Source: a virus. Taken from it: a stretch of 53,599 bases of DNA. Location: positions 1-53,599 of the IMG/VR virus record IMGVR_UViG_3300044954_000264; one strand, 5' to 3'. The notes beneath the pieces were generated by a model that was given only the letters and a program-made list of their open reading frames with translations, did no database searches and was not told the DNA's origin. Shown one piece after another: positions 4,132 to 53,599 of this stretch (its first letter is position 1; each line of letters starts with the position of its first letter). The position numbers were made by a program, and so were the translations under genes.

Positions 4132-4473
4132 TTACAAAAGTTTAGAAAAATCTGAAAGTTCTTCTGTGGAAGCCATTTCCTCTGGCTTATCTTGTTTCTC
4201 TGTGGGCATTTTACTTTCTAACTTAGCTACACTTGCTTTCAGGAGTTGAAGCGCCTTTTCTTTATCTCCCCCGGTTGCCTCCAGGGCGGTCATTATAACA
4301 AGCCATGAACCTCTGAGTTTGCCCATCTTAAGAAGAAGACGCATGTTTTCCCAGTCTACAGGTTGCTCCGACTCAGATACCAAACCGATAATACCAGATG
4401 AAGATAAATTTTTACTAACAGTTTCGTTTATAATGGATTTTAATTGCTTGAGGGATATCTTCATGGTAGTCAT
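4132..4473 (-). CDS. Small virion-type protein with putative capsid-targeting N-terminus
   Basis: 113 residues, function not recognised. The N-terminus MTTMKISLKQLKSIINETVS is an amphipathic helix that recurs, with variation, in many proteins of this window (for instance at 6965-7753, 24284-24643 and 30836-31321). It contains IxE (INE) of the kind cleaved by T4 gp21-type proteases. The rest has a helical segment (LLLKMGKLRGSWLVIMTALEATGG) and an acidic, Lys-rich tail. It lies among tail and baseplate genes. Being an internal head protein is an inference from the shared N-terminus; a tail role is possible. Confidence 0.55.
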   Translation of the reverse strand: MTTMKISLKQLKSIINETVSKNLSSSGIIGLVSESEQPVDWENMRLLLKMGKLRGSWLVIMTALEATGGDKEKALQLLKASVAKLESKMPTEKQDKPEEMASTEELSDFSKLL

Positions 4474-5696: not shown

Positions 5697-6524
5697 TTAG
5701 GTTATTCTTAAATATTCGAGCAATGAAGATTTATCAGAATTACTATATTTCCATGCAAACCCGCCAGTTGAAGGACTTTTGCCGGAAAGTACTCTGCTGA
5801 TATTTGTTATTTTTAGACTAAGTTCGGCTTCTTTTATTGATGGCCAAATTGCTATCAGCGTTGATTTGTCTTTTGACCATTGCTCTATAGAAACACACCT
5901 TCTTTGAAGGTTACCAATACATTTATTTCTAAAAGAAGGATCTAACCATTTTTCTTTTATTTTTTGGCCATATTTTTTTCTACGTTCTTTATTTTTCCAA
6001 ATTTTTGTGCTATTGGCACTTACTATGTTTTTATGCTCTTGAGATTTTAAAGTTTTATTTCTAGTCTCACGATATTCTTTTTTATATTCGTCTGTTTGAT
6101 TTTTCCAAAAATTCTTTGCCGCTGCAGATTTCTTTTGTTTTGTTTCTTCTTGATTTTTAGTTCCATGTCCCTCTCTTGATATCGCTCTATCACAGAGATT
6201 GTAGCATTGATTTCCATTATCAAAATAAATTTTAAGCCATTTTTCTTCGGTCTCAAGCCTTTGTTCTCGGGTTGAATTCGGCATGTTTTCCAGAATATGA
6301 AACTCTAGGAAATCGTCATGTCCAAGTTCTTGTTTGCACTTATTGAAATCGGCTTGAAGAAATTTATTTTGGTGTTTGTTGTTTTTCAAGGAACTAAAGT
6401 GACCTGTATTCCACCTAGTTTTAAATCTTTTACAACTTCCAATATAAGTTCTCCAATTATGGTTGTTGAAGATTATGTAGAGGCCGGAAGATTTTGATAA
6501 GCCATTATAGTTGAATTGTGCCAC
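5697..6524 (-). CDS. GIY-YIG homing endonuclease
   Basis: 275 residues. GLYII (about 14-18) and TYIGS (about 26-30) form the GIY-YIG core, followed by the basic 'R..RW..GH' segment and 'F.E..ILE.M'. The middle is very Lys-rich. The C-terminus (W.S..EA...L.I..IS.VL.GKS..TGGFAWKYS) matches the NUMOD1-type DNA-binding repeat of homing enzymes. It is a free-standing gene between the tail tube gene and a small gene; its AT-rich composition differs from its neighbours. A second, related enzyme lies at 18445-19353, and the two share a 52-base identical stretch. It would cut an allele lacking it and spread by recombination. Confidence 0.88.
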   Translation of the reverse strand: MAQFNYNGLSKSSGLYIIFNNHNWRTYIGSCKRFKTRWNTGHFSSLKNNKHQNKFLQADFNKCKQELGHDDFLEFHILENMPNSTREQRLETEEKWLKIYFDNGNQCYNLCDRAISREGHGTKNQEETKQKKSAAAKNFWKNQTDEYKKEYRETRNKTLKSQEHKNIVSANSTKIWKNKERRKKYGQKIKEKWLDPSFRNKCIGNLQRRCVSIEQWSKDKSTLIAIWPSIKEAELSLKITNISRVLSGKSPSTGGFAWKYSNSDKSSLLEYLRIT

Positions 6525-6964: not shown

Positions 6965-7753
6965 TTACCCGCCATACTTCTTTTTCCATTCGTAATATTC
7001 AGGAGTACCAACCCGGGGTTGAGGTGGTTTTCCTTTAGGTCCTGGGCCCGCTGCCGGCGTAAGTGCATCTCCGGTTTTTGGGTCAACCCAGGAACCAGGC
7101 GGGTTGGCTTGCGCAGGGTCGTGCTTCATAAGACCAACGGGCTGGCGTGCAGGAGTAGGGCGGTTAGATGGCGCATAAGCCGAGCCTGCTTCATCAACCT
7201 CTCCTCTATCTCCAGCAAAATGTCTTTCACCCTGAGGAACCCCAAGACGATCCTCAAGTCTTTTAATAAGACCTCTGAGAGTAGCTCTACCGCTCTTTGT
7301 GGTTCCAAGGCGGTCCAACATGGTTTTTGCATGTTCTAGCTCTGACTTGGAGGTTTCTTCCCATCCCTTAACAGAAGGATGTGTACCCATGGCGATATCA
7401 TAGGCTTTTTCTCTTTCCTCTGGGGTTTTTACGGGTTCTTCCGATGTACCCAAGGTAGAAGACATCATTTCTTCTTCCCCTGGCTCAAACTCGGTTCCCC
7501 ACTCATGGCCCATTTCCTTGAGTTTAAGAGACATAGCCTCCTTAACCATTCCACGGAGTTGTTCCACTGTGATTTTTTGAACACCCGCACTTTCATTGGC
7601 CTTTTTCTTGTCGTCTTCGACTTTTTTGGCGCGTGCGGCAGCAGACTCACCTTGTCTTTTTGAAAGATTAAGAGAAATAGCCTCCTTGACCATTTTTCTG
7701 AGTTCCGCAATAGAAATTTTTGTTACAGTATTTTTGTTGTTGTTTGATGTCAT
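6965..7753 (-). CDS. Virion-type protein with two copies of the amphipathic targeting motif
   Basis: 262 residues, otherwise unrecognised. The amphipathic motif occurs twice: ISIAELRKMVKEAISLNL near residue 13 and ITVEQLRGMVKEAMSLKL near residue 60, joined by a Lys/Ala-rich linker. The rest is Pro/Gly/Lys-rich and probably disordered, except 'SELEHAKTMLDRLGTTKSGRATLRGLIKRLEDRLG', which should be helical. The C-terminus is YYEWKKKYGG. Duplication of the same motif in one protein supports its being a discrete sorting or assembly signal. It ends one base from the gene upstream (7755), so both are likely translated from one message. Confidence 0.6.
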   Translation of the reverse strand: MTSNNNKNTVTKISIAELRKMVKEAISLNLSKRQGESAAARAKKVEDDKKKANESAGVQKITVEQLRGMVKEAMSLKLKEMGHEWGTEFEPGEEEMMSSTLGTSEEPVKTPEEREKAYDIAMGTHPSVKGWEETSKSELEHAKTMLDRLGTTKSGRATLRGLIKRLEDRLGVPQGERHFAGDRGEVDEAGSAYAPSNRPTPARQPVGLMKHDPAQANPPGSWVDPKTGDALTPAAGPGPKGKPPQPRVGTPEYYEWKKKYGG

Positions 7754-16663: not shown

Positions 16664-17512
16664 CTAATATTGTGCCTTATAGTGTTTATCAAAAACGCTC
16701 TTAGTTAAGCCGTAGTCATAAAGTCTTATTTTGCCTTTTACCGTTCTTCCAAAGTGTTCTAGTCTTACGAGGTCTCCGATTTCAAGTTCAAGTTTTTTTG
16801 CAACGTCCATGAGATCTTTTGCAAATTTTATAATAGGCGAATGATAATTTAGACTTTTTAGAAAGTCGGATTGCCTATTTGCTCTTGCGATTCTTTCCAT
16901 GTAAATCTCTACGTCTTCGTCTTCGCCAAGTTGTTTGGCTCGGTCTGCATTATCCCGGTATCTATCAATGTCGGAGGCCAACTTATCCATTTGAGCTTTT
17001 CTCCAACGCCAAAAATCTTCTAAGCTTCTATTGTACTCAAACCAATCCATCAATCTTTGAAACTTATCACTATCAAGCCCAATGAATTGTTCAAATTCAT
17101 TAGGCTCCAGAGGTTTTACAATTTCGGCTACCATCCACTTAAAATCTGGAGAAAAGTCAAATACTTTAGTTACCAGCTCGTTTTGGCCAAGCTTTTGAGC
17201 CACCTCAACCTCGGCTTTATTTTGTGCGGCTCCAGCATTATTTTTGGCAATTTTCAAAGTTTTGTCACCTGACAAAGCGAAAGTTATTCTTGAAGAACCA
17301 CTGCCAAGAAATGGCAAAAATTTCTTCGCGTAGACAATTTCTGGATGGGCTTCCTGACCGGCTGTCGGAATATCCCAAATGTATTCTGGTTCCTTTGGTC
17401 TTTCGTTTGTTCTAGAAATTCTCTTAAACTGCTCAAAATCAAACTTGCCCAAAATTTCCAAAATGAGTAAGTTTACAGTTTCTTTAAGAGTATCATAAAT
17501 TTCGGTACTCAT
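16664..17512 (-). CDS. Kinase-fold protein 1, paralogue lacking the catalytic-loop Asp
   Basis: 282 residues. The N-terminal helix (IYDTLKETVNLLILEILG) is of the targeting type. FLGSGSSRITFALSG (about 69-82), LKIAKN, FKWMVAEIVKP and LYDYG (about 264-268) parallel the downstream paralogue, but the catalytic-loop position reads VRLEHFG without the expected Asp, so it may be a pseudokinase. An insert of about 60 residues between hinge and catalytic region is charged and helical. It ends in TAG, and the following codon is in frame with the second paralogue, so amber readthrough would join the two. The start at 17512 overlaps the stop of the neck gene (ATGA). Confidence 0.6.
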   Translation of the reverse strand: MSTEIYDTLKETVNLLILEILGKFDFEQFKRISRTNERPKEPEYIWDIPTAGQEAHPEIVYAKKFLPFLGSGSSRITFALSGDKTLKIAKNNAGAAQNKAEVEVAQKLGQNELVTKVFDFSPDFKWMVAEIVKPLEPNEFEQFIGLDSDKFQRLMDWFEYNRSLEDFWRWRKAQMDKLASDIDRYRDNADRAKQLGEDEDVEIYMERIARANRQSDFLKSLNYHSPIIKFAKDLMDVAKKLELEIGDLVRLEHFGRTVKGKIRLYDYGLTKSVFDKHYKAQY

Positions 17513-18444: not shown

Positions 18445-19353
18445 TCAACATGTTGCCCTAAACCAACCTTTATAAGATAATCTCTTACCTAAAATAATTT
18501 CTTGCAATTTCCAAGAATCACTTATTCCAATATGGTGAGCAAAATCCCCTAGATTAAAGATATTGGCATACATAATCCGGCCATCTGGTGAAACTAAATT
18601 TGCCGCTGTAAACAACTTGGATTTATTTTCTTTTTTGCCTTCAAAATTTTTGATTTCTTGAACAAGTTTTGTTTTTTGTCTGAAAACATCGACATTTTTT
18701 TGGTGCGTCTTTTCATAGGTTTCTCTTGTTCTACCTACCCTTAGGGCAGCCTTTACTTTTTGAACATGGAGTGGATTTTCCTGCCATCGTTTTCTAGAGC
18801 GATCAGCCGCCTCTTTTCTTTGAATTTCGTTCCCCGGTCCATTCCATCTTTTTTCAAGAGCTTTTTTCATTCTATTTGGGTCAGAAGATTCCTTTTGTCT
18901 TTTTATCATCAAGTCTCTTATTTGCGGGTCGGACCATTGTTTTTTTGTATTTTCAGAAATAAGTTTTCTGGTTTCCTCAGGATTTTTGGCAGAAAATCCT
19001 TCTCTTGAAATAGCTCTGTCGCAGAGGTTGTAGCATTGATTTCCATTGTCAAAGTGGACCTTAATCCATTTTTCTTCCATTTCAAGTCTCTGGCCTCGGG
19101 TTGAATTCGGCATGTTTTCCAGAATATGAAACTCTAGGAAATCGTCGTGGCCAAGAAATTGTCTACATTTATTGAAGTCGGCTTGTAGGAATTTGTTTTG
19201 ATGCTTGCCTTTTAAAAGTGATTTGTAATGTCCATGCTTCCATCTTATTTTGAATACTTTGCAACTGCCAATATATGTTCTCCAATTGTGATTGTTGAAG
19301 ATTATATAAATACCGCCAGAATTCGCTTGTTCATTGTAGTTGAATTGCGCCAT
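18445..19353 (-). CDS. GIY-YIG homing endonuclease, second copy
   Basis: 302 residues; GIYII (about 14-18) and TYIGS (about 26-30) form the catalytic core, with the same 'HNWRTYIGSCK' and 'NSTRGQRLEMEEKW' segments as the enzyme at 5697-6524. The first ~120 residues of the two are closely similar, but the C-termini differ: here it ends with 'SPDGRI', 'IFNLGDFAHHIGIS' and 'GWFRATC', a different helix-turn-helix DNA-binding tail. It lies between the gp13-like gene and the small basic gene. The N-terminal nuclease was therefore duplicated, or exchanged, with different target-recognition tails. Confidence 0.88.
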   Translation of the reverse strand: MAQFNYNEQANSGGIYIIFNNHNWRTYIGSCKVFKIRWKHGHYKSLLKGKHQNKFLQADFNKCRQFLGHDDFLEFHILENMPNSTRGQRLEMEEKWIKVHFDNGNQCYNLCDRAISREGFSAKNPEETRKLISENTKKQWSDPQIRDLMIKRQKESSDPNRMKKALEKRWNGPGNEIQRKEAADRSRKRWQENPLHVQKVKAALRVGRTRETYEKTHQKNVDVFRQKTKLVQEIKNFEGKKENKSKLFTAANLVSPDGRIMYANIFNLGDFAHHIGISDSWKLQEIILGKRLSYKGWFRATC

Positions 19354-20721: not shown

Positions 20722-21264
20722 ATGAAAAACAAAAAAAAGCTTGTAATAATGGACTTTGATGACACCCTTGTTATCTCAGATGAGCACAGCATTATTATTA
20801 CACACGAGGATGGAACAATTATCGAATTAAATGGAAAGGATTGGAGTAAATACTCCCCTAAACCTGGAGATATTTATGATTTTTCCCACCTAGAGCACCT
20901 AAAAAATCCAAGGCCAATCCACAAGACTTGGAAAACTCTCCTAGACCGCCTGTACTCCCTCGGTCCAGAAAACGTCCATATCCTTACGGCGAGAAGCTCC
21001 CAGAAGCCCCTAGAAAAATACTTTAGGGACCATGGGGTACTTGTACCGGTTCACGGACTAGGAATCCCCCCAGGGCAGAATAACGGCATCCACAAGGCAA
21101 GATGGATTGAAGAACAGATTGCCAAAGGTGGATGGGATATTATTGAGTTTTTTGATGACAGAGATGATTGCGTGACCGAAGTCCTAAGGCTAAAGGAAAA
21201 ATATCAAAATATTTTATTTTTCGTGTGGCAGATAAAGGACGAGGATATGTTTTATTGCTCTTAA
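20722..21264 (+). CDS. HAD-superfamily phosphatase
   Basis: 180 residues. All four HAD motifs are present: VIMDFDDTL (motif I, catalytic Asp pair), HILTARS (motif II), IHKARW (motif III Lys) and IEFFDDRDD (motif IV). The fold hydrolyses phosphate esters, using the first Asp as nucleophile. Its small cap and size suit phage nucleotidase or polynucleotide 3'-phosphatase-type enzymes, but the substrate is unknown. It is a lone plus-strand gene between minus-strand operons. Because RNA ligase, Thg1-like polymerase and tRNAs are also encoded, a nucleic-acid end-processing role is conceivable, not shown. Confidence 0.8.
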   Translation: MKNKKKLVIMDFDDTLVISDEHSIIITHEDGTIIELNGKDWSKYSPKPGDIYDFSHLEHLKNPRPIHKTWKTLLDRLYSLGPENVHILTARSSQKPLEKYFRDHGVLVPVHGLGIPPGQNNGIHKARWIEEQIAKGGWDIIEFFDDRDDCVTEVLRLKEKYQNILFFVWQIKDEDMFYCS

Positions 21265-21276
21265 GGTCAAATAGAT

Positions 21277-22560
21277 TTAGGGAGCAGAACTCATCCCAGT
21301 CTCAGTGCTTGTGCATGGGTCAGAAATAATACCAGAAAGATCATCTACCATAGTAAGTGGATCTCTTCTAAGCGCAAACACCATTCCGCACTGGTCAAAA
21401 TCATCAAAAAATGAAGGGTTCTCAAACACGGCAAGAACTTCTCCGTGAGTTAGGGACTCGCACATGGTTGTTTCTGTATTTCTCGGACTAGAATAACTCT
21501 GGGCGTATTCATCCGAAAATAGAATAATAATTCTGATGGTGTTCCTACGCCATCCAATCGCTAGGTCGCCTGTTCCAAGCATTGTAACGGCATCATAGCT
21601 TGGCTCGTCGCCACCCCCGGTGGTGGTAACCATAGCTAGGGCAGTTTCAAAAACTGCAAAAGGAGACAATGGCAAAAATACCTCCGGGTATCCATCCCTC
21701 GTCTCAGAAGGAAACAATACAATTCCAAATTTAAAACCCGGATCTGACCTATAAAGTTCACTAAACATATCCACCGCATCTCTTACGGCATTTATTGCTC
21801 CAAGCATGGAACCAGAAACGTCTATAGCAAACACAACGTCATAACCAGAAACAAGGTGTTCAGCACATTCTCCAGAACTTGTTAGGTAACCGTCTACACA
21901 CCCATCGCAATCATTATCTTCCCCGTCGCAAGCAAGAAGACCGACTTCTGGAATTGGCTGTACTCCTCCTACACACTCTTCCCACAAACCCATGTTACAC
22001 ACCTGTACTCCTCTCTCACACGGAGGAAAAAGCTCAGAAGTGGAGGCTGGGGTAAAGTCATCCCAACACCACCTAGAAATAGGACTGTCAACTGTCCCGT
22101 CGATGACTCCATCGCAATCATTATCTACGGAGTCACAAACTTCTGGAACGCACCTCACAAAAGAGCAATGCCCACGGAGACAGGCATATCCTGCAGCACA
22201 CTCGTCGTCAAACTCGCACACTTCCCCAAGCGGGTCGGATTCATGACAGGAATTAAATCTACACTCCTCCGTTGGGCCACACGAGTCCTCAAGGCCACAC
22301 ATACAAGTGCCAAAAACACACCTGTCGGTCACCACAGAGTCACACACGTTGTCACACATCCCGCAGTTAAAGAAATCAGAGTCGGTCCCGTCGTCTTCCA
22401 TGTCACAGGGGTGGATTTCTACATCCGAGAAAACAATAGGACCAGCGTCAGATGGAGTCCAGGGTACCGGCGGAGAGTTGCGAACTATACAGCCGCTTAC
22501 TGCGGCAACAAGAAGACCAAAAACAAACAAAAACCCTAGCTTCTCTACCTTTTTTAGCAT
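21277..22560 (-). CDS. Lipoprotein with Cys-rich MopE-type repeats and a VWA domain
   Basis: 427 residues. Residues 1-24 form a lipoprotein signal (hydrophobic LGFLFVFGLLVAA, lipobox VSGC with Cys 24). A Cys-rich region follows (CGMCDNVCDSV, CVFGTCMCG, 'CEFDDECAAGYACLRGHC'), then CDSVDNDCDGVIDG and CDGEDNDCDGCVDG, which match the metal-binding MopE-type motif. The C-terminal half is a VWA domain with a MIDAS (VFAIDVSGSM) and 'IIILFSDEYAQS'. It should be anchored in the outer membrane or periplasm and bind a ligand via a divalent metal. Such proteins are common in Myxococcota-like bacteria; host origin by transfer is likely. A hairpin covers its ribosome site. Confidence 0.8.
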   Translation of the reverse strand: MLKKVEKLGFLFVFGLLVAAVSGCIVRNSPPVPWTPSDAGPIVFSDVEIHPCDMEDDGTDSDFFNCGMCDNVCDSVVTDRCVFGTCMCGLEDSCGPTEECRFNSCHESDPLGEVCEFDDECAAGYACLRGHCSFVRCVPEVCDSVDNDCDGVIDGTVDSPISRWCWDDFTPASTSELFPPCERGVQVCNMGLWEECVGGVQPIPEVGLLACDGEDNDCDGCVDGYLTSSGECAEHLVSGYDVVFAIDVSGSMLGAINAVRDAVDMFSELYRSDPGFKFGIVLFPSETRDGYPEVFLPLSPFAVFETALAMVTTTGGGDEPSYDAVTMLGTGDLAIGWRRNTIRIIILFSDEYAQSYSSPRNTETTMCESLTHGEVLAVFENPSFFDDFDQCGMVFALRRDPLTMVDDLSGIISDPCTSTETGMSSAP

Positions 22561-22561
22561 T

Positions 22562-22595
22562 TATTACCCCATAACCTATAACTATGTGGGTAATA
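22562..22595 (-). promoter_or_regulatory. Leader hairpin over the lipoprotein ribosome site
   Basis: TATTACCC (22562-22569) pairs perfectly with GGGTAATA (22588-22595). On the minus strand the 3' arm contains GGGG just before the lipoprotein ATG (22560), so folding would hide the ribosome site. It could also act as a weak processing or termination signal after the Thg1-like gene. Confidence 0.4.
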
Positions 22596-22607
22596 TTTTT
22601 GTTTATT

Positions 22608-23399
22608 TTACTCTTCCAGAACTTTTAGATATTTGTTGATATAATCCCGGTTTTCTGAAAAAATCGGGATTTCATTGTCAACTGTCCACCTAGACCTGAG
22701 GACTCCCGTTTCATTTCCGGCAATAGAAACCGTATAGGTTTCCTTGAAAATAACCCGCCCTCTCCTATGTTGGGTAGGAATGTTGTTCCAGTTCTTATCT
22801 TTTTGGAAGCACATTTCTTGAAGCTCTGAGCTATTTTTGTTGTTACACTCCTTGTGGGAGTACAGGGACCTAGCAAGCATCTGGATGCTGTTTCTGGAAC
22901 AGTCCTGTTGCCTCCACAAAAAATAGTTGCAGACCTCGGACTCCGGGAGAACAAATACCCTGGAGTCAAAATAGGCCGGACGTATAGCATCCAAGTCAGA
23001 GTCTCCGGACTCAAGAAACCTACCAAAAATGTTTGGGGATTCCTTTGTCATGGTAGCAGCGGCGATCGAGGCGCTCACCGAAACCATCTTCTGGATTTCA
23101 TTGTCAAACCATGCGCAGGAGTTAAATTTTTTGTATCCGTGGATGAAAATAGAAATTTCATCCGACTGCACGTAGGCCATTTGTGCTCCCTGAATATTGG
23201 AACACAGAGCAATGGCTACATTATTCATGGCCTCGATGAGGGAGTCATCAAATGGCCGAGAACAGTTTTTTGTATAGGTATGGAAAGCCTTGCCGTCTAC
23301 ACGGAGAATAACCGGCATACGAATAGGAAGTTGTCCTTTGAAGGCACCTTCATACATTTTCATGCGGTCACCGAGAGAATCATTACTTGAAATGGTCAT
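22608..23399 (-). CDS. Thg1-like 3'-5' RNA polymerase (tRNA-His guanylyltransferase family)
   Basis: About 263 residues from ATG 23399. LGDRMKMYE (about 9-17), RVDGKAFHTYT (33-43, metal-binding Asp 35), and AYVQSDEISIF (75-85, Asp 80/Glu 81) are the diagnostic Thg1 motifs. The family adds nucleotides in the 3'-to-5' direction, either G-1 to tRNA-His or, in bacterial-type Thg1-like proteins, repairing 5'-truncated tRNAs. An in-frame GTG at 23438 could extend the N-terminus, but the conserved family start begins right after the ATG. With the phage's RNA ligase, tRNAs and Ro60 protein, tRNA repair is the likely role (inference). Confidence 0.88.
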   Translation of the reverse strand: MTISSNDSLGDRMKMYEGAFKGQLPIRMPVILRVDGKAFHTYTKNCSRPFDDSLIEAMNNVAIALCSNIQGAQMAYVQSDEISIFIHGYKKFNSCAWFDNEIQKMVSVSASIAAATMTKESPNIFGRFLESGDSDLDAIRPAYFDSRVFVLPESEVCNYFLWRQQDCSRNSIQMLARSLYSHKECNNKNSSELQEMCFQKDKNWNNIPTQHRRGRVIFKETYTVSIAGNETGVLRSRWTVDNEIPIFSENRDYINKYLKVLEE

Positions 23400-23458
23400 G
23401 CAAAGTACTCTATCAGAGACCAATTTTAAAGTCAACACTCTCTCTTCTCTAACGGCGT

Positions 23459-24274
23459 TTATTTATTTTTATTCTTTTTTTTCTTCTCGATTTTCACCTT
23501 ACCAACGACCTTGGCATAGGGAGAATAAAAAACGGTAGTACCTGGGTCATCATTAACAATAGAAATCGGCCCCTGAGGTTCAACCTGATATACGGTAGGA
23601 GTTCCCCCGCCAAAGGACTGCACAGCCCTACCAGCATAAATAAGGGCGCTCCTTGGGTCCTTGGTAAAAAATACCTTGTCCAGGTTTACCTTTCTACCTT
23701 TTTCTGACACCCGTCCGGTTTTACTAGGTGGCAAAACAAGACTTCCGGGTTTTAGGTCACCAAGATTAGTTCCATGATAGTACTTTTCTTGTGTTTCTTT
23801 TTCTTTTGGGGAGTCATCAACAAATTGCTCTAGGCTTTCAGAAAAATAAGGGGAGGACATGTCTGGGTCTCCATAGGAATATCTCCTAAAGTCCCTGAAT
23901 GGGTCCGGTTTCCTTGGCGCGTCTTTCTTGGAGCGGAGATATTTCGCAAGACCTCTTCTGTAGGCAGTTCCAAATGGAATATATTTCATCCACCTTGTCC
24001 AGAAATCAAGCTTTTCCATGTCACTTCTGGAAAGAGTTGCCCTGCCTTTTCTCCTGGTGAGAAGTTTTGCAATAAGGGCGTCAACTTGTTTTTCCTGGGC
24101 GGCGGTTATTTCTGGGTCCTGGTTAACATCCTTGAGTTTTCTTTTGGCCTTCCTCAGGGTGCCGACAAGGGGATTCTCTAGATTGGGGTCTCCGTCCACA
24201 ACCTGTGAAACCTCCTCAGAAATTACCTTAGTGGTAATTTCCTCAATCAAACTATGTAAAACTCCGTAGATCAT
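23459..24274 (-). CDS. Arr-like ADP-ribosyltransferase with putative capsid-targeting N-terminus
   Basis: 271 residues. The C-terminal ~110 residues match the rifampin ADP-ribosyltransferase (Arr) pattern: YYHGTN (His 167), LKPGSLVLPP, VFFTKDPRSALIYAGRAV, VYQVEPQGP, NDDPG and KVVGKV. In the family these form the NAD-binding site and a His-Tyr-Asp/Glu active site. The N-terminus VLHSLIEEITTKVISEEVSQ is the amphipathic motif with (I/L)xE sites seen in other virion-type proteins here; a Lys/Arg-rich domain links the two (about 40-135). I infer a head-packaged enzyme, analogous to T4 Alt but of a different ART branch. Its target is unknown; antibiotic modification is possible but less fitting for a phage. 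Confidence 0.7.
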   Translation of the reverse strand: MIYGVLHSLIEEITTKVISEEVSQVVDGDPNLENPLVGTLRKAKRKLKDVNQDPEITAAQEKQVDALIAKLLTRRKGRATLSRSDMEKLDFWTRWMKYIPFGTAYRRGLAKYLRSKKDAPRKPDPFRDFRRYSYGDPDMSSPYFSESLEQFVDDSPKEKETQEKYYHGTNLGDLKPGSLVLPPSKTGRVSEKGRKVNLDKVFFTKDPRSALIYAGRAVQSFGGGTPTVYQVEPQGPISIVNDDPGTTVFYSPYAKVVGKVKIEKKKKNKNK

Positions 24275-24283
24275 TCATGTTTC

Positions 24284-24643
24284 TCAAAATGCTGCATCTT
24301 CGGCAGGGTCATATTCTCTTAGCAGATATTTTATAACCGCATTTCCTCCATCGACAAAGAAGGTACCAAAGTCGTCGATAACATATGGTTCAATATCCAT
24401 GGCGGATCTTATCGAATCTATCAATGAATCCTGGAACTCATTTTGCAATACCGAAATATCTTTATTCCAATTTGGAATGGTTATTCTTAATTCTTCTGGG
24501 GTATAAAAAACTGAAGGACGGCCAGGAATATTATGTTCCTGCATAAATTCTTGCAAAACTTCCAGGATGCCAACAGGGACATCTCTTCCTGCTATCGCCT
24601 CATAAACGATTTCCTCAATCAAAGCCTGTAAAGTATTTTTCAT
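24284..24643 (-). CDS. Small protein with putative capsid-targeting N-terminus
   Basis: 119 residues, unrecognised. The N-terminus KNTLQALIEEIVYEAIAG is nearly the same pattern as the Arr-like protein's (LIEE followed by a second helical turn). The rest is acidic and mixed alpha/beta, with RPSVFYTPEELRITIPNW and DDFGTFFVDGGNAVIKYLL. It lies 9 bases upstream of the Arr-like gene and 6 bases downstream of another motif-bearing gene, so the three form one transcription unit. It could be an inhibitor, chaperone or independent packaged protein; nothing in the sequence decides this. Confidence 0.55.
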   Translation of the reverse strand: MKNTLQALIEEIVYEAIAGRDVPVGILEVLQEFMQEHNIPGRPSVFYTPEELRITIPNWNKDISVLQNEFQDSLIDSIRSAMDIEPYVIDDFGTFFVDGGNAVIKYLLREYDPAEDAAF

Positions 24644-24649: not shown

Positions 24650-25816
24650 TTACCTATCAAATTCTTTTGCGGCAAGGAATGCCCAGTGATCGGCATCCTC
24701 GTGACTCAATCCCCATTTTGCCTCAAGGGCACCAGAAATATCCTCGAATGACGGATTCTCTGATCCGGTGATGTCTTGCAACATTTTCCAAAACTCTGGC
24801 GACTGTGCCGTTACAGCCTTTTGTTGTGGATCAAAAGCATATAAGTCTTGAAACTTCGTTGGATTTGGCGTTACGTCAGACAACCTTGTCGTCATGGACG
24901 GGTCTTCTTCAGAATATCTAAGGGTTTTGGCTTCATTTTTACTGCCATGCTTCTTCCATGCAGTCGCATAAAGAACTTCCATGCCCTTCTCCTTGCCATA
25001 CTGCTTGATAAACTTTTGTTTATTTGCGTTTATCCACTTCTCAATTTCTGGATCTGGTGGAGCCTTTTCATATACCATGCCCTCTACCCTGACTCCGGTG
25101 CTTGCGTGAGCACGAGACTTTATTACTCCAGACATGAGTTCCATTGCCCGCCTGATGGCAGATTCGTCTTCGGAAGACAGATCCTCTGCGGCCATCATTT
25201 CCTCAATACTATTGAGAAGGTCCACAATTTCCTTTGTGCCCATGTTTCCCTTTGGAGGGCTTACAATAGGATTTTTTGGCATAGGAACAACCACCTTAGG
25301 CTTATTTGATGCGGTTTTTCCTTTTCTATTTAGCATGGTATCCTCAACGACCCTGCCAACAAGATATTTTATGTTTTCCATATAGGCTTCTTGTTGAGGA
25401 GCAACCCCACCAGCGAGTTGCTGATTTCCTCTTTGAATGGCCATGGCAATTTTCTGCCTTTTTTGTGGATCCGTCTCCCTTACGAGCATAGTTTGAAGCT
25501 GGGAAAGTTTTTGGGCAATCTCCGAAGAGGAAAGTGCCTCATCCAGCGAAAACGGATTATCTTTCCCTTCCCCAATCGCCCCAAGCGCCCCAGGGGGAAT
25601 TGGAGGAGCCATACCCTGGGGTCTACCACTGGCAAGCTGTTTAAGGGCTTTTTGTTTCTCTCTTTCCAGCTTTTGCCTTTTAGCGGGATCTTTTTCTACC
25701 TGTAGTCTGGCATGGATATCTCTCAGAGTACCTCCAAGGTCTTCTTCCATGGCTACATTTTCTGCTACTTTTTTAATTGCCTTTTCCAACAATTCAAGGG
25801 AAACCTTTTTGGTCAT
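24650..25816 (-). CDS. Virion-type protein with amphipathic N-terminus and two helical repeats
   Basis: 388 residues. The N-terminus VSLELLEKAIKKVAENVAME is of the targeting type. Two related segments (RLQVEKDPAKRQKLEREKQ about 32-50 and LVRETDPQKRQKIAMAIQR about 112-130) suggest an internal duplication. Near residue 270, KQYGKEKGMEVLYATAWKKH resembles a motif I have seen in head proteins of T4-like marine phages. The C-terminus ends in helical 'LEAKWGLSHEDADHWAFLAA'. It is first in the operon upstream of the Arr-like gene, and lies just downstream of the capsid gene's terminator. An internal head or core protein is a reasonable inference. Confidence 0.6.
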   Translation of the reverse strand: MTKKVSLELLEKAIKKVAENVAMEEDLGGTLRDIHARLQVEKDPAKRQKLEREKQKALKQLASGRPQGMAPPIPPGALGAIGEGKDNPFSLDEALSSSEIAQKLSQLQTMLVRETDPQKRQKIAMAIQRGNQQLAGGVAPQQEAYMENIKYLVGRVVEDTMLNRKGKTASNKPKVVVPMPKNPIVSPPKGNMGTKEIVDLLNSIEEMMAAEDLSSEDESAIRRAMELMSGVIKSRAHASTGVRVEGMVYEKAPPDPEIEKWINANKQKFIKQYGKEKGMEVLYATAWKKHGSKNEAKTLRYSEEDPSMTTRLSDVTPNPTKFQDLYAFDPQQKAVTAQSPEFWKMLQDITGSENPSFEDISGALEAKWGLSHEDADHWAFLAAKEFDR

Positions 25817-30835: not shown

Positions 30836-31321
30836 TTACCTTTTTCTCTTATTTCCACCAAAGGCTGCTAATGCCCACCGTGACACATTTCCACCAGACA
30901 TAGCCTTAAGCTGAGCCTCATCCAAGGCGGCTATTTCCCCAGAAACAGGAGCTTCATTATATAGAGCCCCAGCATTACCGAAGGCATCACCATTGCTAAG
31001 TTGCCTCTGAAGAGTAGTCATAGCCGTGTCAAGCATTATCTCCTCGAAAAGACCTTTGCGTTCTTTTGGCTGTGCAGAAGTAACATTTTTAACAGCTTCC
31101 AAAAGCTTAGGATTCACATTAGGCATGTTTTCGGAAGGAGTACTATTTTGTTGACCATACCCATAAAGAAGAGAGGGAGACTTAGCTTCTACTATCTGTG
31201 CAGGTTTGCTGAACTTGCTCTCCGCAATTTTTTCTAGCTTTTTGTCAAAAGCTCCTTCATTTATGAGTTCCGACAGGCACTCCTTCATAAGGGTTTTAAA
31301 TTGTGACCTTGACATTTTCAT
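30836..31321 (-). CDS. Small head-type protein with putative capsid-targeting N-terminus
   Basis: 161 residues, unrecognised. The N-terminus SRSQFKTLMKECLSELINEG fits the recurring amphipathic motif and includes LINE, a plausible gp21-type cleavage site. A further KLEKIAESKF and QIVEAKSPSLLYGYGQ follow, then a Gly/Asn/Ala-rich C-terminal half ending GGNKRKR. The start overlaps the stop of the prohead protease gene (ATGA), so the two are translationally coupled. Its neighbourhood (protease, scaffold, capsid) makes an internal or core head protein likely. Confidence 0.6.
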   Translation of the reverse strand: MKMSRSQFKTLMKECLSELINEGAFDKKLEKIAESKFSKPAQIVEAKSPSLLYGYGQQNSTPSENMPNVNPKLLEAVKNVTSAQPKERKGLFEEIMLDTAMTTLQRQLSNGDAFGNAGALYNEAPVSGEIAALDEAQLKAMSGGNVSRWALAAFGGNKRKR

Positions 31322-38232: not shown

Positions 38233-39987
38233 ATGACAAATATTCCCCAGCACCAACAGACAACTAATTCGTCTCAAAAGCAAGAAGTAGTTTTTGAGGA
38301 AAAGGCACACGAGGAAATCCTTAAGGGTGCTACCATTTTAGCAAAGGCAGTTAGGTCAACAATGGGACCTAGTGGTCATGGAGTTATCATTGACTACAAA
38401 AACAAGGCACCCCTTATTACAAAAGACGGTGTAACGGTTGCAAAGTCCATAAACCTAAAAGATAAAATGCAAAATATCGGAGCAGAGCTTCTAAAAGAAA
38501 TTGCTTCTAAAACAAACGAATTATCTGGAGATGGAACTACTACCGCTACCGTTCTTGGACATGGGCTTCTGGCTCAGGGAATAAAAATGATTGCCACCGG
38601 AAGGTCTGCCATCGGCCTGAAAAAAGGCATTGACCTAGGGTGCAAGGAAGTAATAGACTTTCTAAAGGAAAACTGCGTTCCAGTTAGCAGCGAAAAAGAT
38701 ATAGTTGCAATTGGGACAATCTCGGCCAACGGTGACCAAAAAATTGGAGAACTTTTATCAGATGCCATCAATAAAGTTGGGGCAGATGGTATTATAACCG
38801 TAGAGCCGGCAAAAAGCGTGAATACTCAACTAGAGGTAGTTGAGGGACTTCAGATTGAAAGCGGATACCTGTCACCATACTTTGTAACAAATGGTGAAAA
38901 GCTGGTTTGTGAACTCCGTGAACCATATATTCTTCTTACCAACAGGAGAATATCATCACTGGATGACATAGTGCCAGTTCTAGAAACCGTTTACCGCGCA
39001 GGAAAACCGCTCCTTATCGTTGCAGACGAAATCGAAGGAGAAGCACTGCATACTCTTATTGTAAACAAGATGAAGGAAAAAATAAGCGTGTGCGCAATCA
39101 AGGCTCCTTCCTACGGGGAAAATAGAACCGATATTTTACAGGATATAAATTGTGTTATTGGCGGCAAAATAATTGACCTGTCCTCCGAGACTCAGCTAAA
39201 AAATATTCAACTTGCTCACTTTGGAACTTGCAAAAAAGTAATTGTCAGTAGGACAGCCACAACAATAATTGGTTCCTCGGATTCAAAAACAAAAGAAGCC
39301 ATAGCCGGAAGAATGCAAATGCTCAGAAATACCCTTTCTGATGGCACCTTGGACGATCTTCACACAAATAGATTTAGGAAGCGTCTTGCAAAACTATCTG
39401 GTGGCGTAGCTGTTATCAAGGTAGGTGGGTCTACCGAAGTAGAAATCCTTGAAAAAAAAGACAGAGTAGAGGATGCCCTTAACGCCACGATTGCTGCCAC
39501 TCAAGAGGGAATCGTTCCTGGTGGGGGTAGTGCTCTTTTTTATGCGGCACTACATCTTAGAAAAATGCTGGTAGAGGATGAAGTTTGGAAAACTCTTCCA
39601 GAGGACGTTGCCGCCGGCATTCAGGTTGTAGCAAATACCTGTGAACTTCCCCTTAGGACCATAGTAGAAAATACCGGCACTACATCGGAAATAGTAGTGG
39701 CCAAACTAAAAGATTTTGTGGCAACAAATAACCTTAGTCTCAAAAAGAAAAGAAAAATGGATATAGGCCACAAAAATATTATAGAGTGGGATAATCCACT
39801 ATTGCCATCCATGGTTTTCAAGGAAATACTAGGGTATGATGCCGCAAATCACGAATATGGAGACTTACTTGGTAAGGGCATTATTGACCCGGTAAAGGTA
39901 ACAAGATATGCCCTTGAACACGCATGTTCTGTTATTGGGCTGGTATTAACCTGCAGTGCAGTTATAATTAACCAAGAAGAGGAATGA
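38233..39987 (+). CDS. groEL: GroEL-type chaperonin
   Basis: 584 residues (bacterial GroEL about 548). [15 protein letters not shown], '[12 protein letters not shown]', [14 protein letters not shown] (ATP site) and '[16 protein letters not shown]', 'PGGGSAL' are canonical group I chaperonin motifs; the Asp needed for ATP hydrolysis (VEDAL) is present. The apical domain contains [13 protein letters not shown]. The GGM-rich tail of bacterial GroEL is absent and the C-terminus is longer and different. It probably folds capsid or other virion proteins. A GroES-like gene exists elsewhere (48007-48284) but appears frameshifted. Confidence 0.97.
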
Positions 39988-42324: not shown

Positions 42325-43962
42325 TTATTCTAGCTTGTTGCCGTCGTCTGTTTCCGTCGTAGACGCTACCGACCGAGAAGCACCATCAAACTCTGTTATT
42401 TTCTTAACCCAATATTCAGGTTCGCCAGTTCCCTTAACGAACTCATCAATTACGGTGAATACAGCATCGCTGAATCCACCTACATTAAGGCGTTCTTTTG
42501 CATCCGGGGCCTGAACTGTTGTATTTGGCGTAAGGTCAATGCAAACCAGCTTTGCTTTAGGATTTCGATTCTTGAACTTCTGCCACTCGCTCATAAGAGT
42601 CGTGGCCGGACCATGATAGTTACCACGATCATACCAAGACTCATTGTCGGAGACAACAATCACGAGATCGCCCTTACGGGAGTTTTCGTTAAGCAGTCTA
42701 ACAAAGGAGGAGCAATCAGTACCACCGCCAGGCGTAGCAATTTTTCTAGCATTGGTCATAACGGAATCACGACCATTTAGATTAACAGGCTTAGCTTGTG
42801 TGTCGAAAGTAAATACTTCCGTTTCCTCATTCTTACGCTTTATTGCGGAAGCAATAAGAGCAGCCACCTGACGACAGGAGGTTTTAGAGGTGGCAGAACC
42901 ACGATAACCGGACACGGAAGAATCCATGGAACCGGAGATATCTACGCCGACAAAGATTTTACCAGAAAACGTTGGTACGTTTTCAATAGAGTGCTCCATA
43001 GCATCCTGCAGGGCATTTATTACGCTCTGCGGAATGTCTGTAGATTGTTCAGTGTTAAGGTATGCCGTGAAAAGCTGATATGGGAAAGCCTTGGCCTTCT
43101 CAACGAGAGACTTGTCACGAAGCCTGTCAGCTACAAGCTTAGCAATTTCAGAATTCTTGAAAACCCCGTGGCGAGCGAAGGTATTAAGATTCATTCTCGT
43201 CATCTGCCACTTTGCATTTCTGGCAATAGACTCCCACTCTGCCGTAGCTAGAGGAAGTGCCGTAAGCATCTGGAAATTGACATTTGGAATCTTGGCTTCT
43301 CCAAAATTACGGTTCTTGTTGGCCATAGCAGCCTTAAATGCCTCAAACTCCTGAACGATGCCAGGAAGAACAGAAGCATCGTGCTTCTTGTCCATAATGT
43401 AGGCATATAGAGCTTCCCTCGTCTTTGTCTCTGGACGTGGGTGAACCATCTTGATAATGTCCGACAGAGACGGGTCATTACCAACCGAGTCGTTAAAAAT
43501 CTGATTGTCGCTTCTGGTTTCCAGCCACTTCTCAATCATGCGCTTTGGAGCAGTTCCAAGAGATTTACGACCGGTTACACCCGAACGCATAATCTGAACA
43601 AAGTTGCGGACCATCTTTCCGTTATCCATTACCTTTGGGAAGGTAATCTTGAACATGTCGATGTCCCTAGCGGCTAGTGTAGCCAGAAGAAATGCCGGCA
43701 TATCCTTCATAAAGGCAGAATTTCTAGAGTACACAGCAAGGCTCGAAATAAAGGCCGTGTCAACCTTGTTGACAAGGCTTTTAATTTCCTCAAGCTGCTT
43801 AACAGCATCCGAATAGAAGGTATTTCCGAACATACCGGTGCAGGCAAACTGTGCAAGAGCATGTTTGTCTGTCATGCTGTAGGCTTTTCCTCCAGCCAAG
43901 TTCGTGGTGTCTGCAGCAGGAAGAGTCGTGCCAGCGGACTTAAAAATGTTTTTGTTTGCCAT
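42325..43962 (-). CDS. rsr: Ro60 / TROVE-domain RNA-binding protein
   Basis: 545 residues. The TROVE ring is recognisable from 'HALAQFACTGMFGNTFYSDA', 'FISSLAVYSRNSAFMKDMPAF', 'MRSGVTGRKSLGTAPKRMI'; the C-terminal VWA domain has a MIDAS (VGVDISGSM). Ro proteins bind the 3' ends of misfolded RNAs and Y RNAs, and in bacteria work with nucleases in RNA quality control. Codon use is biased to C-ending codons, suggesting strong expression. It is flanked by tRNA-Thr downstream and a 278-base gene-free region and a tRNA upstream, a setting that could hold a Y RNA. GAGACG-type purine-rich sequence precedes ATG 43962. Confidence 0.9.
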   Translation of the reverse strand: MANKNIFKSAGTTLPAADTTNLAGGKAYSMTDKHALAQFACTGMFGNTFYSDAVKQLEEIKSLVNKVDTAFISSLAVYSRNSAFMKDMPAFLLATLAARDIDMFKITFPKVMDNGKMVRNFVQIMRSGVTGRKSLGTAPKRMIEKWLETRSDNQIFNDSVGNDPSLSDIIKMVHPRPETKTREALYAYIMDKKHDASVLPGIVQEFEAFKAAMANKNRNFGEAKIPNVNFQMLTALPLATAEWESIARNAKWQMTRMNLNTFARHGVFKNSEIAKLVADRLRDKSLVEKAKAFPYQLFTAYLNTEQSTDIPQSVINALQDAMEHSIENVPTFSGKIFVGVDISGSMDSSVSGYRGSATSKTSCRQVAALIASAIKRKNEETEVFTFDTQAKPVNLNGRDSVMTNARKIATPGGGTDCSSFVRLLNENSRKGDLVIVVSDNESWYDRGNYHGPATTLMSEWQKFKNRNPKAKLVCIDLTPNTTVQAPDAKERLNVGGFSDAVFTVIDEFVKGTGEPEYWVKKITEFDGASRSVASTTETDDGNKLE

Positions 43963-44240: not shown

Positions 44241-44312
44241 AGTTCCCAGAGGGAATCGAACCCTCCTAATCCGGTTTTAGAAGCCGTTGGCTCACCACTA
44301 GCCTATGGGAAC
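44241..44312 (-). tRNA. tRNA with apparent CTA anticodon (possible amber suppressor)
   Basis: 72 bases: acceptor GTTCCCA/TGGGAAC, D-stem GGCT/AGCC, T-arm GAGGG-TTCGATT-CCCTC. With standard numbering the anticodon loop is TTCTAAA, giving CTA, which reads UAG. The anticodon stem ACGGC/ACCGG has mismatches at its first and last pair, so a loop shift giving TCT (Arg) cannot be excluded. Confidence 0.6.
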
Positions 44313-51337: not shown

Positions 51338-52069
51338 TTACATTTCTTTCCAGCGGGCAAGTAACATTTTAACTTGTAAAGGAGAACGAAGTCCATAGGT
51401 TCCAAGAGAAAATCCATCATTTACTTCTATGAGAGCAGTATCCCACATTCTCTCTCGGGAGTCAAGCATGGCACCGACATCCACTGAATAGGCTACCGGC
51501 ATCACAGGGGTCGCTATCTTAATCATTTTTTGAACTTGTTCAATTCTCGGGTACCACTCCACAGAGCCGGCATAACGCCTTACGTCAAGGAGTTCTCCGT
51601 CTAGAACGAAACATCTGTATTCGCTTTTCCAGAAAACTACTTCACTCGCCAAGATTGGCATGTCCTTTGGAAGATGGGACGTTTTCAGAAGTTCTAAGAA
51701 ACTTTTAACAACGTGCCCTGTGAAAATCTTGTGGTCAACCTTAGGCTTAATGAAAACTGGCCACTTATCCTCATTAAGGTGAATATCTCCTAAGGTAGTC
51801 GTCCATATTTTCCTATGAGTAAAAACGGCTAGACAATCTGGAATATCAATTGGTTCTGGCGGCTTGCACCCAAGAATTTCAATTGCCTTCCTGACATATC
51901 CAATCCCGCCAACGACAGGAGTTTCTTTTGTTATGTTGTTTCGAATTTCTTCGATGTTGGCGAAAGGGACAACTTCCCAGCCCATTTGATGAAACCAGGA
52001 AGCTGCCGAGAAACAATTAATATCTAACCAATCGGTATTAAACTGATTTCGTTGTACGAAAACCTTCAT
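51338..52069 (-). CDS. ATP-grasp protein, R2K-type
   Basis: 243 residues. WPVFIKPKVDHKIFTGHVVK, LASEVVFWKSEYRCFVLDGE and 'LIEVNDGFSLGTYGL' fit the phage-rich R2K ATP-grasp group (FIKPK, SEVV..SEYR.F, VEVNDG). The fold ligates a carboxylate to an amine or thiol using ATP; Lys, Glu and Asn residues of the ATP/Mg site are visible. Substrate unknown: a peptide or protein tail modification, or a step linked to the NAD operon. The start (ATGA) overlaps the NadV stop, so it is translationally coupled. Confidence 0.75.
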   Translation of the reverse strand: MKVFVQRNQFNTDWLDINCFSAASWFHQMGWEVVPFANIEEIRNNITKETPVVGGIGYVRKAIEILGCKPPEPIDIPDCLAVFTHRKIWTTTLGDIHLNEDKWPVFIKPKVDHKIFTGHVVKSFLELLKTSHLPKDMPILASEVVFWKSEYRCFVLDGELLDVRRYAGSVEWYPRIEQVQKMIKIATPVMPVAYSVDVGAMLDSRERMWDTALIEVNDGFSLGTYGLRSPLQVKMLLARWKEM

Positions 52070-53599
52070 ACGCGCTCGCGGACTGTGCTGCGATACCTCT
52101 GGGTTATTTCTTTCACCAGATTATCCACGGCCGTAGTCGTATGACCGGCTACCTTTGGCATTTCATCAAAGCCCTTTATGACCCTTGCCTCACAGGTGTT
52201 AAAGTCGTCCAGGAAGCCAGGACCAAAAGGAGCCTCCGCAGAGCCGTCATAGTAGGTTACAAGAGCATCCTGACCATAGGGCTCTCCAGGTAGAGCAACT
52301 GTAATGCCGCTCTTGCGGGCAAGTTCATTGCGACAAACCTTAACCAAGGGAAGAGTACCCTTGCCCTTTTCTTCCGAAAGCTTGATAACCGGACGATTAT
52401 CTTTGCCAACGGCGCACAAAGCAAACTTCGTGCTCATGTGGTCACGGTTAATGTTGTTACGAAGGTGTCCGCCAACGCCGAAAATACCACAGCGCCAAGG
52501 AACAAAGCCTTCATTAATGCACGCACGAATAATTGCACGAATCGTGTCGAACGTTTCACCGTTTCCAACAATGAATCGAAGATTGGTACTTTCGTACATT
52601 GGACGATTAATCCTCGTCTCCACCGGCTTCATAAGTCCAGCAGCCTTTGCACGATTGAGCGTTCCGACAACCATTTCAACGCTATCGCCGGAATCAGGAC
52701 GAGCCACGACAATTTTTCCATTGCCCTTGGCTTTTGCATCCAGGGCTAGAGGAATCAGACACTTCTCAACAGCGTTCCAATAGTCGTAGCAATCTGCAAC
52801 CATCGACAAGAATTCGCCATTCTCAGCAACCTCGTACATCTGGCGGTAGCAGTCGAATTCATTTTCGAAACCCTGAACAAGTCGATGGGCAAGAGCATTT
52901 ACCGAGGAACCCATTGCAGGATTTGCGCCATTCTTCCAGTTTTGGTAAGCACCACGGAAAGTGTCGGTACCAAACCACACGTAGTTATGAACTTTGGCTA
53001 CAAATTCAGACTCCTGAGGACATGCTGCTGCACGGTCGCCGAAGTCATGGACCATCAACCGAGCCCAAAACATGCACTGCTCATCCGAAACGCTTGGCAT
53101 TTCAAGTTCGCGGATTTCGTTGTATGCCCACTTAAGGAAGTGGCGAGCAGCAGTAAGGCGCTCAGAAGCCGACCACACATGAAGGAGGGTGCTCTCGAAC
53201 CAAGGAACAAGAGGACCAAATCCAGGCTTCGTGGCAGAGACACGGATACATGGCTCCCCGGGGTAAACAACTCCGCCCTCTGGAATGCCCTCAACCTTCA
53301 AGGGAAGGTAACCGTCACACTCATCCACCACTCGTCGCCACAAGGCTTCCGGGAATTCCCAGTCCTTGAAGCCAAAAGCCGTCGCCTTGCGACCCTTGAG
53401 AAACTCTACAGAGTCATCAATTTCCTTGTGAGTGTAGGGCTCGTAAAAGAGCATGTCACACACAGACTGCAATCCGGCAAACAAAATACGAAGATCATGC
53501 TGCTCATAAACAGCAGGTTCGGCCTTTAGGGGGAACTTGCGATAGGTGCCGTAGTAGACCGAATTTTCGGTAGCCTCAACACTTTCAAGTTTGTAGCCG
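52066..53599 (-). CDS. nadV: Nicotinamide phosphoribosyltransferase, 5' end outside the window
   Basis: The frame is open to the window edge; the apparent start at 53484 is internal because residues GYKLESVEATENSVYYGTYR are encoded upstream of it. 'DLRILFAGLQ' matches the FGLQ region, 'MVHDFGDRAA' and 'WFGTDTFRGAY' match the nicotinamide/PRPP pocket region, and 'VARPDSGDSVEMVV' the phosphate-binding loop of NAMPT. It makes NMN from nicotinamide and PRPP. Codon use is biased to C-ending codons, implying strong expression. It is first in an operon with the ATP-grasp, CinA-like and NMNAT-like genes. Confidence 0.93.
   Translation of the reverse strand, partial: GYKLESVEATENSVYYGTYRKFPLKAEPAVYEQHDLRILFAGLQSVCDMLFYEPYTHKEIDDSVEFLKGRKATAFGFKDWEFPEALWRRVVDECDGYLPLKVEGIPEGGVVYPGEPCIRVSATKPGFGPLVPWFESTLLHVWSASERLTAARHFLKWAYNEIRELEMPSVSDEQCMFWARLMVHDFGDRAAACPQESEFVAKVHNYVWFGTDTFRGAYQNWKNGANPAMGSSVNALAHRLVQGFENEFDCYRQMYEVAENGEFLSMVADCYDYWNAVEKCLIPLALDAKAKGNGKIVVARPDSGDSVEMVVGTLNRAKAAGLMKPVETRINRPMYESTNLRFIVGNGETFDTIRAIIRACINEGFVPWRCGIFGVGGHLRNNINRDHMSTKFALCAVGKDNRPVIKLSEEKGKGTLPLVKVCRNELARKSGITVALPGEPYGQDALVTYYDGSAEAPFGPGFLDDFNTCEARVIKGFDEMPKVAGHTTTAVDNLVKEITQRYRSTVRERV

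What the first reader, a model, noticed from the sequence alone, without database searches (positions are those of the whole stretch)
21277..22560. Phage-encoded VWA lipoprotein with MopE-type repeats
The lipoprotein signal, Cys-rich repeats with CDxxDNDCDG and a VWA domain are a combination typical of bacterial surface proteins, rarely seen in phages. It may alter the host surface (superinfection exclusion, adhesion) or hint at the host group. The leader hairpin suggests regulated expression.
Basis: partly seen in the sequence, partly recalled or inferred. Interest (0 to 1): 0.6.

Follow-up and report, generated by a model that had tools for sequence, protein, structure and literature searches.

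The report
Phage integrin-like surface lipoprotein, MopE repeats
A large virus of bacteria carries an optional gene for a membrane-anchored, integrin-like sticky protein that belongs to a family found in at least a hundred uncultured viruses, absent from the reference collections searched here and often paired with the virus's cell-wall-cutting enzyme, so it probably alters the surface of the infected cell.

Summary
Window 21277-22560 (-) encodes a 427-aa protein with a lipobox (VSG|C24), two exact CDxxDNDCDG MopE-type motifs and a VWA/MIDAS domain predicted with high confidence (integrin-beta-like by fold). The window is a fragment of a T4-like phage, and the gene lies inside its structural block, so it is not host DNA. 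'Rarely seen in phages' needs correcting. No homologue was found in 50,697 GenBank phages, PHROGs or NCBIfam, but at least 100 IMG/VR contigs encode the family, and those read in full are nearly all lipoproteins with 1-8 MopE repeats plus a VWA domain. The family is phage-restricted in my searches; cellular relatives (CglD-type gliding lipoproteins of Myxococcota) are distant. The gene is accessory: the closest syntenic phage has an ADP-ribosylglycohydrolase-like gene in the same slot and no copy anywhere in 320 kb. In other carriers it is repeatedly coupled, often overlapping, to the phage's only small secreted lytic transglycosylase (6 of 7 records that have one). Best reading: a surface MIDAS lipoprotein displayed on the infected cell that remodels its envelope. 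Whether it serves release, exclusion of competing phages or adhesion is undecided. The leader hairpin exists but is unexceptional for this genome. Host unknown.

The parts
21277..22560 (-). gene for the MopE-VWA lipoprotein (427 aa, P0001)
22492..22560 (-). signal peptide, residues 1-23; lipobox VSG before Cys24 (codon 22489-22491)
   Evidence: sequence; nearly all full-length relatives also have a lipobox
22165..22299 (-). Cys-rich DUF7107-like segment, residues 88-132
   Evidence: E 1e-3, below cut-off
22096..22137 (-). MopE-type motif 1, CDSVDNDCDGVIDG, residues 142-155
21889..21930 (-). MopE-type motif 2, CDGEDNDCDGCVDG, residues 211-224
   Evidence: invariant or nearly so in the family alignment
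21313..21843 (-). VWA domain, residues 240-416: MIDAS DVSGS (247-251), conserved E319, D323, and D350-E351-x-x-Q354 signature, family-conserved Cys416
22563..22594 (-). leader inverted repeat (about 12 bp stem) directly upstream of the start codon; significance doubtful
20722..22607 (.). accessory slot between Thg1 and neck gene: here VWA gene plus HAD/PNK-like gene (+); in the closest relative an ADP-ribosylglycohydrolase-like gene plus the HAD gene

Best explanation
The gene is an accessory cargo ('moron') gene of a T4-like, probably jumbo, phage. It encodes a Sec-exported lipoprotein anchored in the infected cell's envelope, most likely surface-exposed on the outer membrane. A stalk of disulphide- and metal-stabilised MopE-type repeats presents an integrin-like VWA/MIDAS head that binds a ligand through a divalent metal. 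It is made by the infected cell, not built into the virion, and acts by remodelling the surface of that cell, in many relatives together with a co-encoded secreted lytic transglycosylase. Shown by computation: lipobox, repeats, MIDAS fold and conserved metal-site residues, a family restricted to phages in these searches, presence/absence variation at the locus, coupling to a transglycosylase in relatives. Inferred: outer-membrane and outward location, metal-dependent ligand binding, action on the infected cell surface. Not resolved: whether the benefit is lysis/release, exclusion of competitors or adhesion.
For: Lipobox and Sec signal in P0001 and nearly all full-length relatives. VWA with invariant DxSGSM, E, D and DExxQ across 21 diverse members; AlphaFold VWA at pLDDT around 90 or more and Foldseek top hits integrin beta I-like domains, inter-alpha-inhibitor and the mussel byssus MIDAS protein PTMP1. 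Family in 109 IMG/VR contigs but not in GenBank phages, PHROGs or NCBIfam. Accessory status: the closest syntenic phage (L198/L278: MCP 92-97% over the part held, neck 82%, Thg1 63%, HAD 51%) has another gene in the slot and no family member in 320 kb; none is found in 17 of 18 related records, and the one weak match is a short VWA hit. Pairing with a small secreted SLT transglycosylase in 28 of 80 loci, reading frames touching or overlapping by about 50 nt in many, 6 of 7 records with such an SLT having it beside the VWA gene, two opposite arrangements in distant clades and the SLT-VWA pair found in a different gene neighbourhood in L038/L039/L048. Bacterial MIDAS lipoproteins with this layout act at the cell surface: CglB/CglD (PMC4488436, PMC12288465), Bd0875 (PMC11003981).
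Against: No direct evidence of expression, localisation or ligand. The window's own copy has no transglycosylase within the 53.6 kb held. Many carriers lack the SLT altogether. The N-terminal and MopE part is poorly predicted (pLDDT below 50). Outer versus inner membrane retention cannot be read from sequence in an unknown host.
Confidence: 0.6

Rival explanations
1. Release/lysis factor: the lipoprotein is the outer-membrane component of an envelope-rupture cassette with the secreted transglycosylase, doing the job of an outer-membrane spanin or loosening the outer layer or cell-cell matrix so that progeny escape.
For: The only small secreted SLT of the genome lies beside the VWA gene in 6 of 7 records, often with overlapping frames; the arrangement recurs in two distant clades and the pair occurs in more than one gene neighbourhood. 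L016/L025/L032 have a TM plus coiled-coil, inner-spanin-like ORF overlapping the VWA start; L018/L045/L049 have a small Cys-rich lipoprotein there; L023 has a VanY peptidase two genes away.
Against: Much larger than known spanins and with a ligand-binding MIDAS head (own knowledge of spanins); in the main clade it sits among nucleotide and replication genes, not a late cassette; about two thirds of carriers examined have no SLT gene and the window has none nearby.
Confidence: 0.27
2. Superinfection exclusion: the lipoprotein binds or masks the phage receptor or surface of the infected cell, so that competing virions do not adsorb or inject, like the T5 Llp lipoprotein but from the outer face.
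For: Phage-encoded envelope lipoproteins with known roles are mostly exclusion or conversion factors (own knowledge); accessory, swapped gene content fits such a role.
Against: No receptor, no exclusion data; does not by itself explain the coupling to a transglycosylase.
Confidence: 0.25
3. Behavioural or adhesive mimic: the phage protein imitates host MIDAS adhesin lipoproteins (CglB/CglD of gliding myxobacteria, Bd0875 of Bdellovibrio) and changes gliding, predation or cell-cell contact so that infected cells meet new hosts or are held in place.
For: In a Myxococcus genome the one match to the phage VWA profile at E <= 1e-6 is CglD (E 8.7e-7); hhalign to CglD gives 93% probability, E 2.9e-7; same layout of lipobox, Asp-rich metal-binding repeats and VWA.
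Against: Similarity to CglD is remote and partly the generic VWA fold; CglD has thrombospondin-3-like, not MopE, repeats; host group not established.
Confidence: 0.18
4. Virion or tail-associated protein.
For: Lies among structural genes in the window.
Against: Sec/lipoprotein signal conserved in the family, absent from close relatives with the same structural block, sits among replication genes in other carriers.
Confidence: 0.05
5. Misassembled or captured host DNA with no function in the phage.
For: MopE lipoproteins are plentiful in Myxococcota genomes.
Against: Independent contig L002 with the same junction; at least 100 other phage contigs carry relatives; GC and GC3 within the window's range; intact frame and conserved MIDAS.
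Confidence: 0.02

Closest known systems
CglD / CglB, outer-membrane gliding-motility lipoproteins of Myxococcus (NCBIfam NF033765 for CglD)
   Same: Lipoprotein with a VWA (VWA_2) domain, Asp-rich metal-binding repeats before it in CglD; CglD is the best match of the phage profile in a Myxococcus genome
   Different: Phage proteins have MopE instead of thrombospondin-3-like repeats, the SDExxQ signature and C-terminal Cys, are shorter than CglD, score nothing with NF033765, and are phage-encoded
MIDAS-family adhesin Bd0875 of Bdellovibrio (PMC11003981; NCBIfam NF052240 is the Bdellovibrio MIDAS adhesin model)
   Same: Lipobox followed by a VWA/MIDAS domain; surface-expressed
   Different: No MopE repeats described; no NF052240 hit for any phage member
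MopE / Cu-binding_MopE motif (Pfam PF11617)
   Same: CxxxDNDCDGxxD repeats; P0002 passes the Pfam cut-off (E 1e-14)
   Different: Only the short motif is shared; copper binding is untested and should not be assumed
Phage-encoded envelope lipoproteins (T5 Llp, lambda Bor, outer-membrane spanins; own knowledge)
   Same: Lipoprotein made by a phage for the infected cell; many relatives lie beside a peptidoglycan hydrolase gene
   Different: Far larger, Cys-rich, with a MIDAS ligand-binding head; no sequence relation tested

Membership tests
Bacterial lipoprotein | N-terminal Sec signal with lipobox ending in Cys | tested here: met
   VSG|C24 in P0001; lipobox in nearly all full-length relatives
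VWA/MIDAS domain proteins | Rossmann-like VWA fold with DxSxS and further metal-site acidic residues | tested here: met
   single-sequence Pfam score is just below the cut-off
VWA/MIDAS domain proteins | divalent-metal-dependent ligand binding | not testable with these tools
   needs biochemistry
MopE-type repeat proteins (PF11617) | score above Pfam cut-off | tested here: inconclusive
   P0001 19.5 bits against 27, but two exact motifs and relative P0002 at 54.8 bits
CglD gliding lipoprotein (NF033765) | score above the curated cut-off of 400 bits | tested here: not met
   no hit for any phage member; remote profile similarity only
Bdellovibrio MIDAS adhesin (NF052240) | score above the curated cut-off of 700 bits | tested here: not met
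   no hit for any phage member
Known phage protein family (PHROGs) | hit to any of 38,880 families | tested here: not met
Superinfection exclusion lipoprotein (Llp-like) | blocks adsorption or injection of related phages | not testable with these tools
   no experiment possible
Outer-membrane spanin | small lipoprotein encoded with an inner-membrane coiled-coil partner and endolysin | tested here: inconclusive
   SLT neighbour in 28 of 80 loci, TM coiled-coil partner only in near-identical loci L016/L025/L032; size far above spanins; window copy has neither next to it in the 53.6 kb held

The most novel reading that the evidence does not exclude
A phage-restricted family of integrin-like MIDAS lipoproteins forms, with a secreted lytic transglycosylase, a mobile envelope module that replaces classical spanins or opens the outer surface for phage release: a MIDAS-based lysis or release mechanism not described before.
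Probability: 0.17. Interest if true: 0.82.

Novelty: new variant of a known kind. Interest (0 to 1): 0.57.

Why it matters
It reveals a widespread but, in the databases searched, unnamed family of surface proteins made by uncultivated large phages: integrin-like heads on MopE stalks, attached as lipoproteins. If functional on the infected cell, they are a new class of phage tool for altering the outer surface of diderm hosts, and their pairing with the only small secreted wall-cutting enzyme makes a specific role in release or envelope remodelling testable. The family signature (MopE, DxSGSM, SDExxQ, lipobox) allows annotation of more than a hundred hypothetical proteins.

Tried and rejected
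Cultured-phage homologues by tblastn with P0001 and P0002: none; window DNA against GenBank phages: none. First genome-contig scan with P0001: 23 pattern matches, none a relative; the alignment scan found MopE repeats in Myxococcota-type genomes, but matches cover mostly the repeats, not the VWA. VWA profile over 379 Myxococcota genomes: the only strong match (G232, E 3e-41) is itself phage-like; true cellular matches reach only 3.5e-15 (L178) and 2.5e-13 (L299). In that survey only 7 candidates per genome were scored, so absence of a closer cellular relative is not proved. P0001 over the same phylum: nothing at 1e-12, with 4 candidates scored per genome. T4-like late-promoter octamer TATAAATA: 4 in the window, near chance, none on the gene's strand. 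sigma70-like sites: at chance level. A CglB-like 420-aa protein of Myxococcus (identity as CglB not established) gave no convincing profile match. Host from portal relatives: hits include Microcystis and Flavobacterium phages, so uninformative. Papers combining phage, von Willebrand and MopE: none in the library; virus, lipoprotein, von Willebrand, auxiliary metabolic and marine together: none.

Full report
WHAT IS THERE. The ORF at 21277-22560 (-) encodes 427 aa starting MLKKVEKLGFLFVFGLLVAAVSGC, a signal peptide with lipobox VSG|C24. The mature part is Cys-rich (29 Cys) and holds two exact CDxxDNDCDG motifs (residues 142-155 and 211-224; 0 of 100,000 shuffles contain one), then a VWA domain with the MIDAS motif DVSGS (247-251). 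Single-sequence Pfam hits are real but below the curated cut-offs. AlphaFold with 20 family members gives the VWA domain pLDDT around 90 or more and leaves the N-terminal repeat region uncertain. Foldseek places the VWA with integrin beta I-like domains, inter-alpha-inhibitor heavy chain, PTMP1 and CMG2. The family-invariant Glu319 and Asp350 could be the counterparts of the second- and third-loop metal ligands of integrin beta MIDAS sites (inference).

THE GENOME. The window is a 53.6-kb IMG/VR virus record of a T4-like myovirus: gp20 portal, gp21-type protease, gp23 capsid, gp19 tube, sheath-like proteins. No close DNA relative exists among GenBank phages (for the 20 kb around the gene). The closest relative found is a 320-kb contig, so the phage is probably a jumbo phage. 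The VWA gene lies in the structural block on the same strand, between Thg1 and the neck gene. A second contig, L002, has the identical Thg1-VWA junction. It is not host DNA.

A PHAGE FAMILY. No homologue exists in 50,697 GenBank phages, PHROGs or NCBIfam. In IMG/VR, 109 contigs encode a relative. Of the 80 retrieved, nearly all full-length members have a lipobox, 1-8 MopE-type repeats and a C-terminal VWA with DxSGSM and SDExxQ-like signatures; some pairs of loci are near-identical or overlapping records. Fifteen of 27 records tested (the window included) have a T4-type portal; the rest are often short fragments. P0001 groups with L007 (165-kb contig; 40% identity over the matched region) inside the phage family (SH-aLRT 96), though the tree has long branches.

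CELLULAR RELATIVES ARE DISTANT. MopE-rich genomes are mostly Myxococcota. Individual genomes reached through these loci, and then 379 genomes of the phylum, gave at best E 3.5e-15 for the phage VWA profile, against about 1e-46 to 1e-98 for phage members. The single strong match (G232) is a phage-like contig binned with a bacterial genome: it has DnaJ, a SprT-like lipoprotein and other genes seen beside the phage homologues. This is at most a weak hint at a Myxococcota host. Only a few candidates per genome were scored in the big surveys, so a closer cellular relative could have been missed. In a Myxococcus genome the one match at E <= 1e-6 is CglD, a predicted outer-membrane lipoprotein with a VWA domain (PMC4488436); hhalign supports a remote relation (93%, E 2.9e-7).

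ACCESSORY GENE. In the closest syntenic phage (L198/L278) the order capsid, Arr-like, Thg1, slot, HAD, neck is preserved, but the slot holds an ADP-ribosylglycohydrolase-like gene on the opposite strand (identified by reading its sequence, not by a family search). Its 320-kb contig has no family member. Seventeen of 18 related records lack one; the exception is a short, weak VWA match. Other relatives (L199, L201) have yet other genes between capsid and neck. The lipoprotein is therefore cargo, not a core structural gene.

LINK TO A TRANSGLYCOSYLASE. A small exported SLT-domain protein (Pfam SLT E about 1e-17 to 1e-19) lies near the gene in 28 of 80 loci. Of 24 carrier or comparison records, seven have a single small SLT, and in six of these it is beside the VWA gene. 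Its reading frame touches or overlaps the VWA start (often by about 50 nt) in many loci of one large clade, while in L019, L020, L024 and L074, a distant clade, it lies about 0.35 kb downstream. In L038/L039/L048 the same SLT-VWA pair sits in a different neighbourhood. Other envelope proteins recur beside the gene: VanY peptidase (L023), trypsin-like lipoprotein (L026, L068, L086), SprT-like lipoprotein (L050, L066, G232), small Cys-rich lipoprotein (L018, L045, L049). The loci are not independent, so I give no P-value. The window shows no SLT in the part held.

HOW IT PROBABLY WORKS. The anatomy gives a lipid anchor, a disulphide-rich stalk with metal-binding-type repeats, and an integrin-like head. 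Bacterial proteins of this build act at the surface: CglB, the adhesin of gliding focal adhesions (PMC12288465), and Bd0875, which needs its MIDAS motif for prey invasion (PMC11003981). The phage protein should thus be shown on the envelope of the infected cell and bind a ligand there. Three payoffs remain open: lysis or release with the SLT, exclusion of competitors, altered adhesion. I hold the envelope-remodelling reading at 0.6 and none of the three payoffs above 0.3; the payoffs are alternatives within that reading, so these numbers overlap.

LEADER HAIRPIN. A 12-bp inverted repeat precedes the start codon (22563-22594). It folds at z = -3.05 in a 101-nt stretch but z = -1.6 in a 70-nt leader, tenth of 41 leaders. 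Its significance is doubtful and no covariation can be tested because L002 is identical.

VERDICT. The gene is one member of a sizeable, so far unnamed phage-specific family: a new variant of the known MIDAS-lipoprotein kind.

Noticed in passing
window 4132-4473, 6965-7753, 16664-17512, 23459-24274, 24284-24643, 24650-25816, 30836-31321: Several unrelated proteins, including the Arr-like ADP-ribosyltransferase, share a similar amphipathic N-terminal peptide (such as LKQLIxEiVxeal, once repeated in tandem in 6965-7753); relatives show similar N-termini (MKLLFENWRKLLKE-type). It may be a capsid-targeting tag for injected internal proteins.
   Followed up: no
L198:4559-5422 against window 23459-24274: The closest relative has an ADP-ribosylglycohydrolase-like gene in the slot of the VWA gene, two genes from the shared Arr-like ADP-ribosyltransferase: a possible transferase/hydrolase pair.
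   Followed up: partly
window 22608-23438: Phage-encoded tRNA-His guanylyltransferase (Thg1; PHROG 4717, E 2e-89); relatives in 20 other viral contigs.
   Followed up: partly
window 42325-43962: Ro60/TROVE protein with its own VWA domain in a tRNA-rich region.
   Followed up: no
window 44241-44312: ARAGORN calls a tRNA with anticodon CUA (labelled tRNA-Pyl): possibly an amber suppressor; not checked.
   Followed up: no
window 5697-6524 and 18445-19353: Two closely similar GIY-YIG homing endonucleases in the structural region; the second has a strong hairpin spanning its start codon (z -3.8).
   Followed up: no
window 38233-39987 and 52066-53484: Phage-encoded GroEL and nicotinamide/nicotinate phosphoribosyltransferase.
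   Followed up: no
L052:5786-10400: Two different MopE-VWA lipoprotein genes in tandem in one phage contig; the second is very diverged.
   Followed up: no
L066:+1 neighbour, L050:+1, L182:7750-8505: Family of small secreted proteins with a HELVH metalloprotease-like motif directly downstream of the VWA lipoprotein; no Pfam match.
   Followed up: partly
L067 and L053, +1 and +2 neighbours (clusters 1 and 2): Two unknown proteins of about 260 and 285 aa follow the VWA gene throughout the main clade (54-56 loci) and have no Pfam match.
   Followed up: partly
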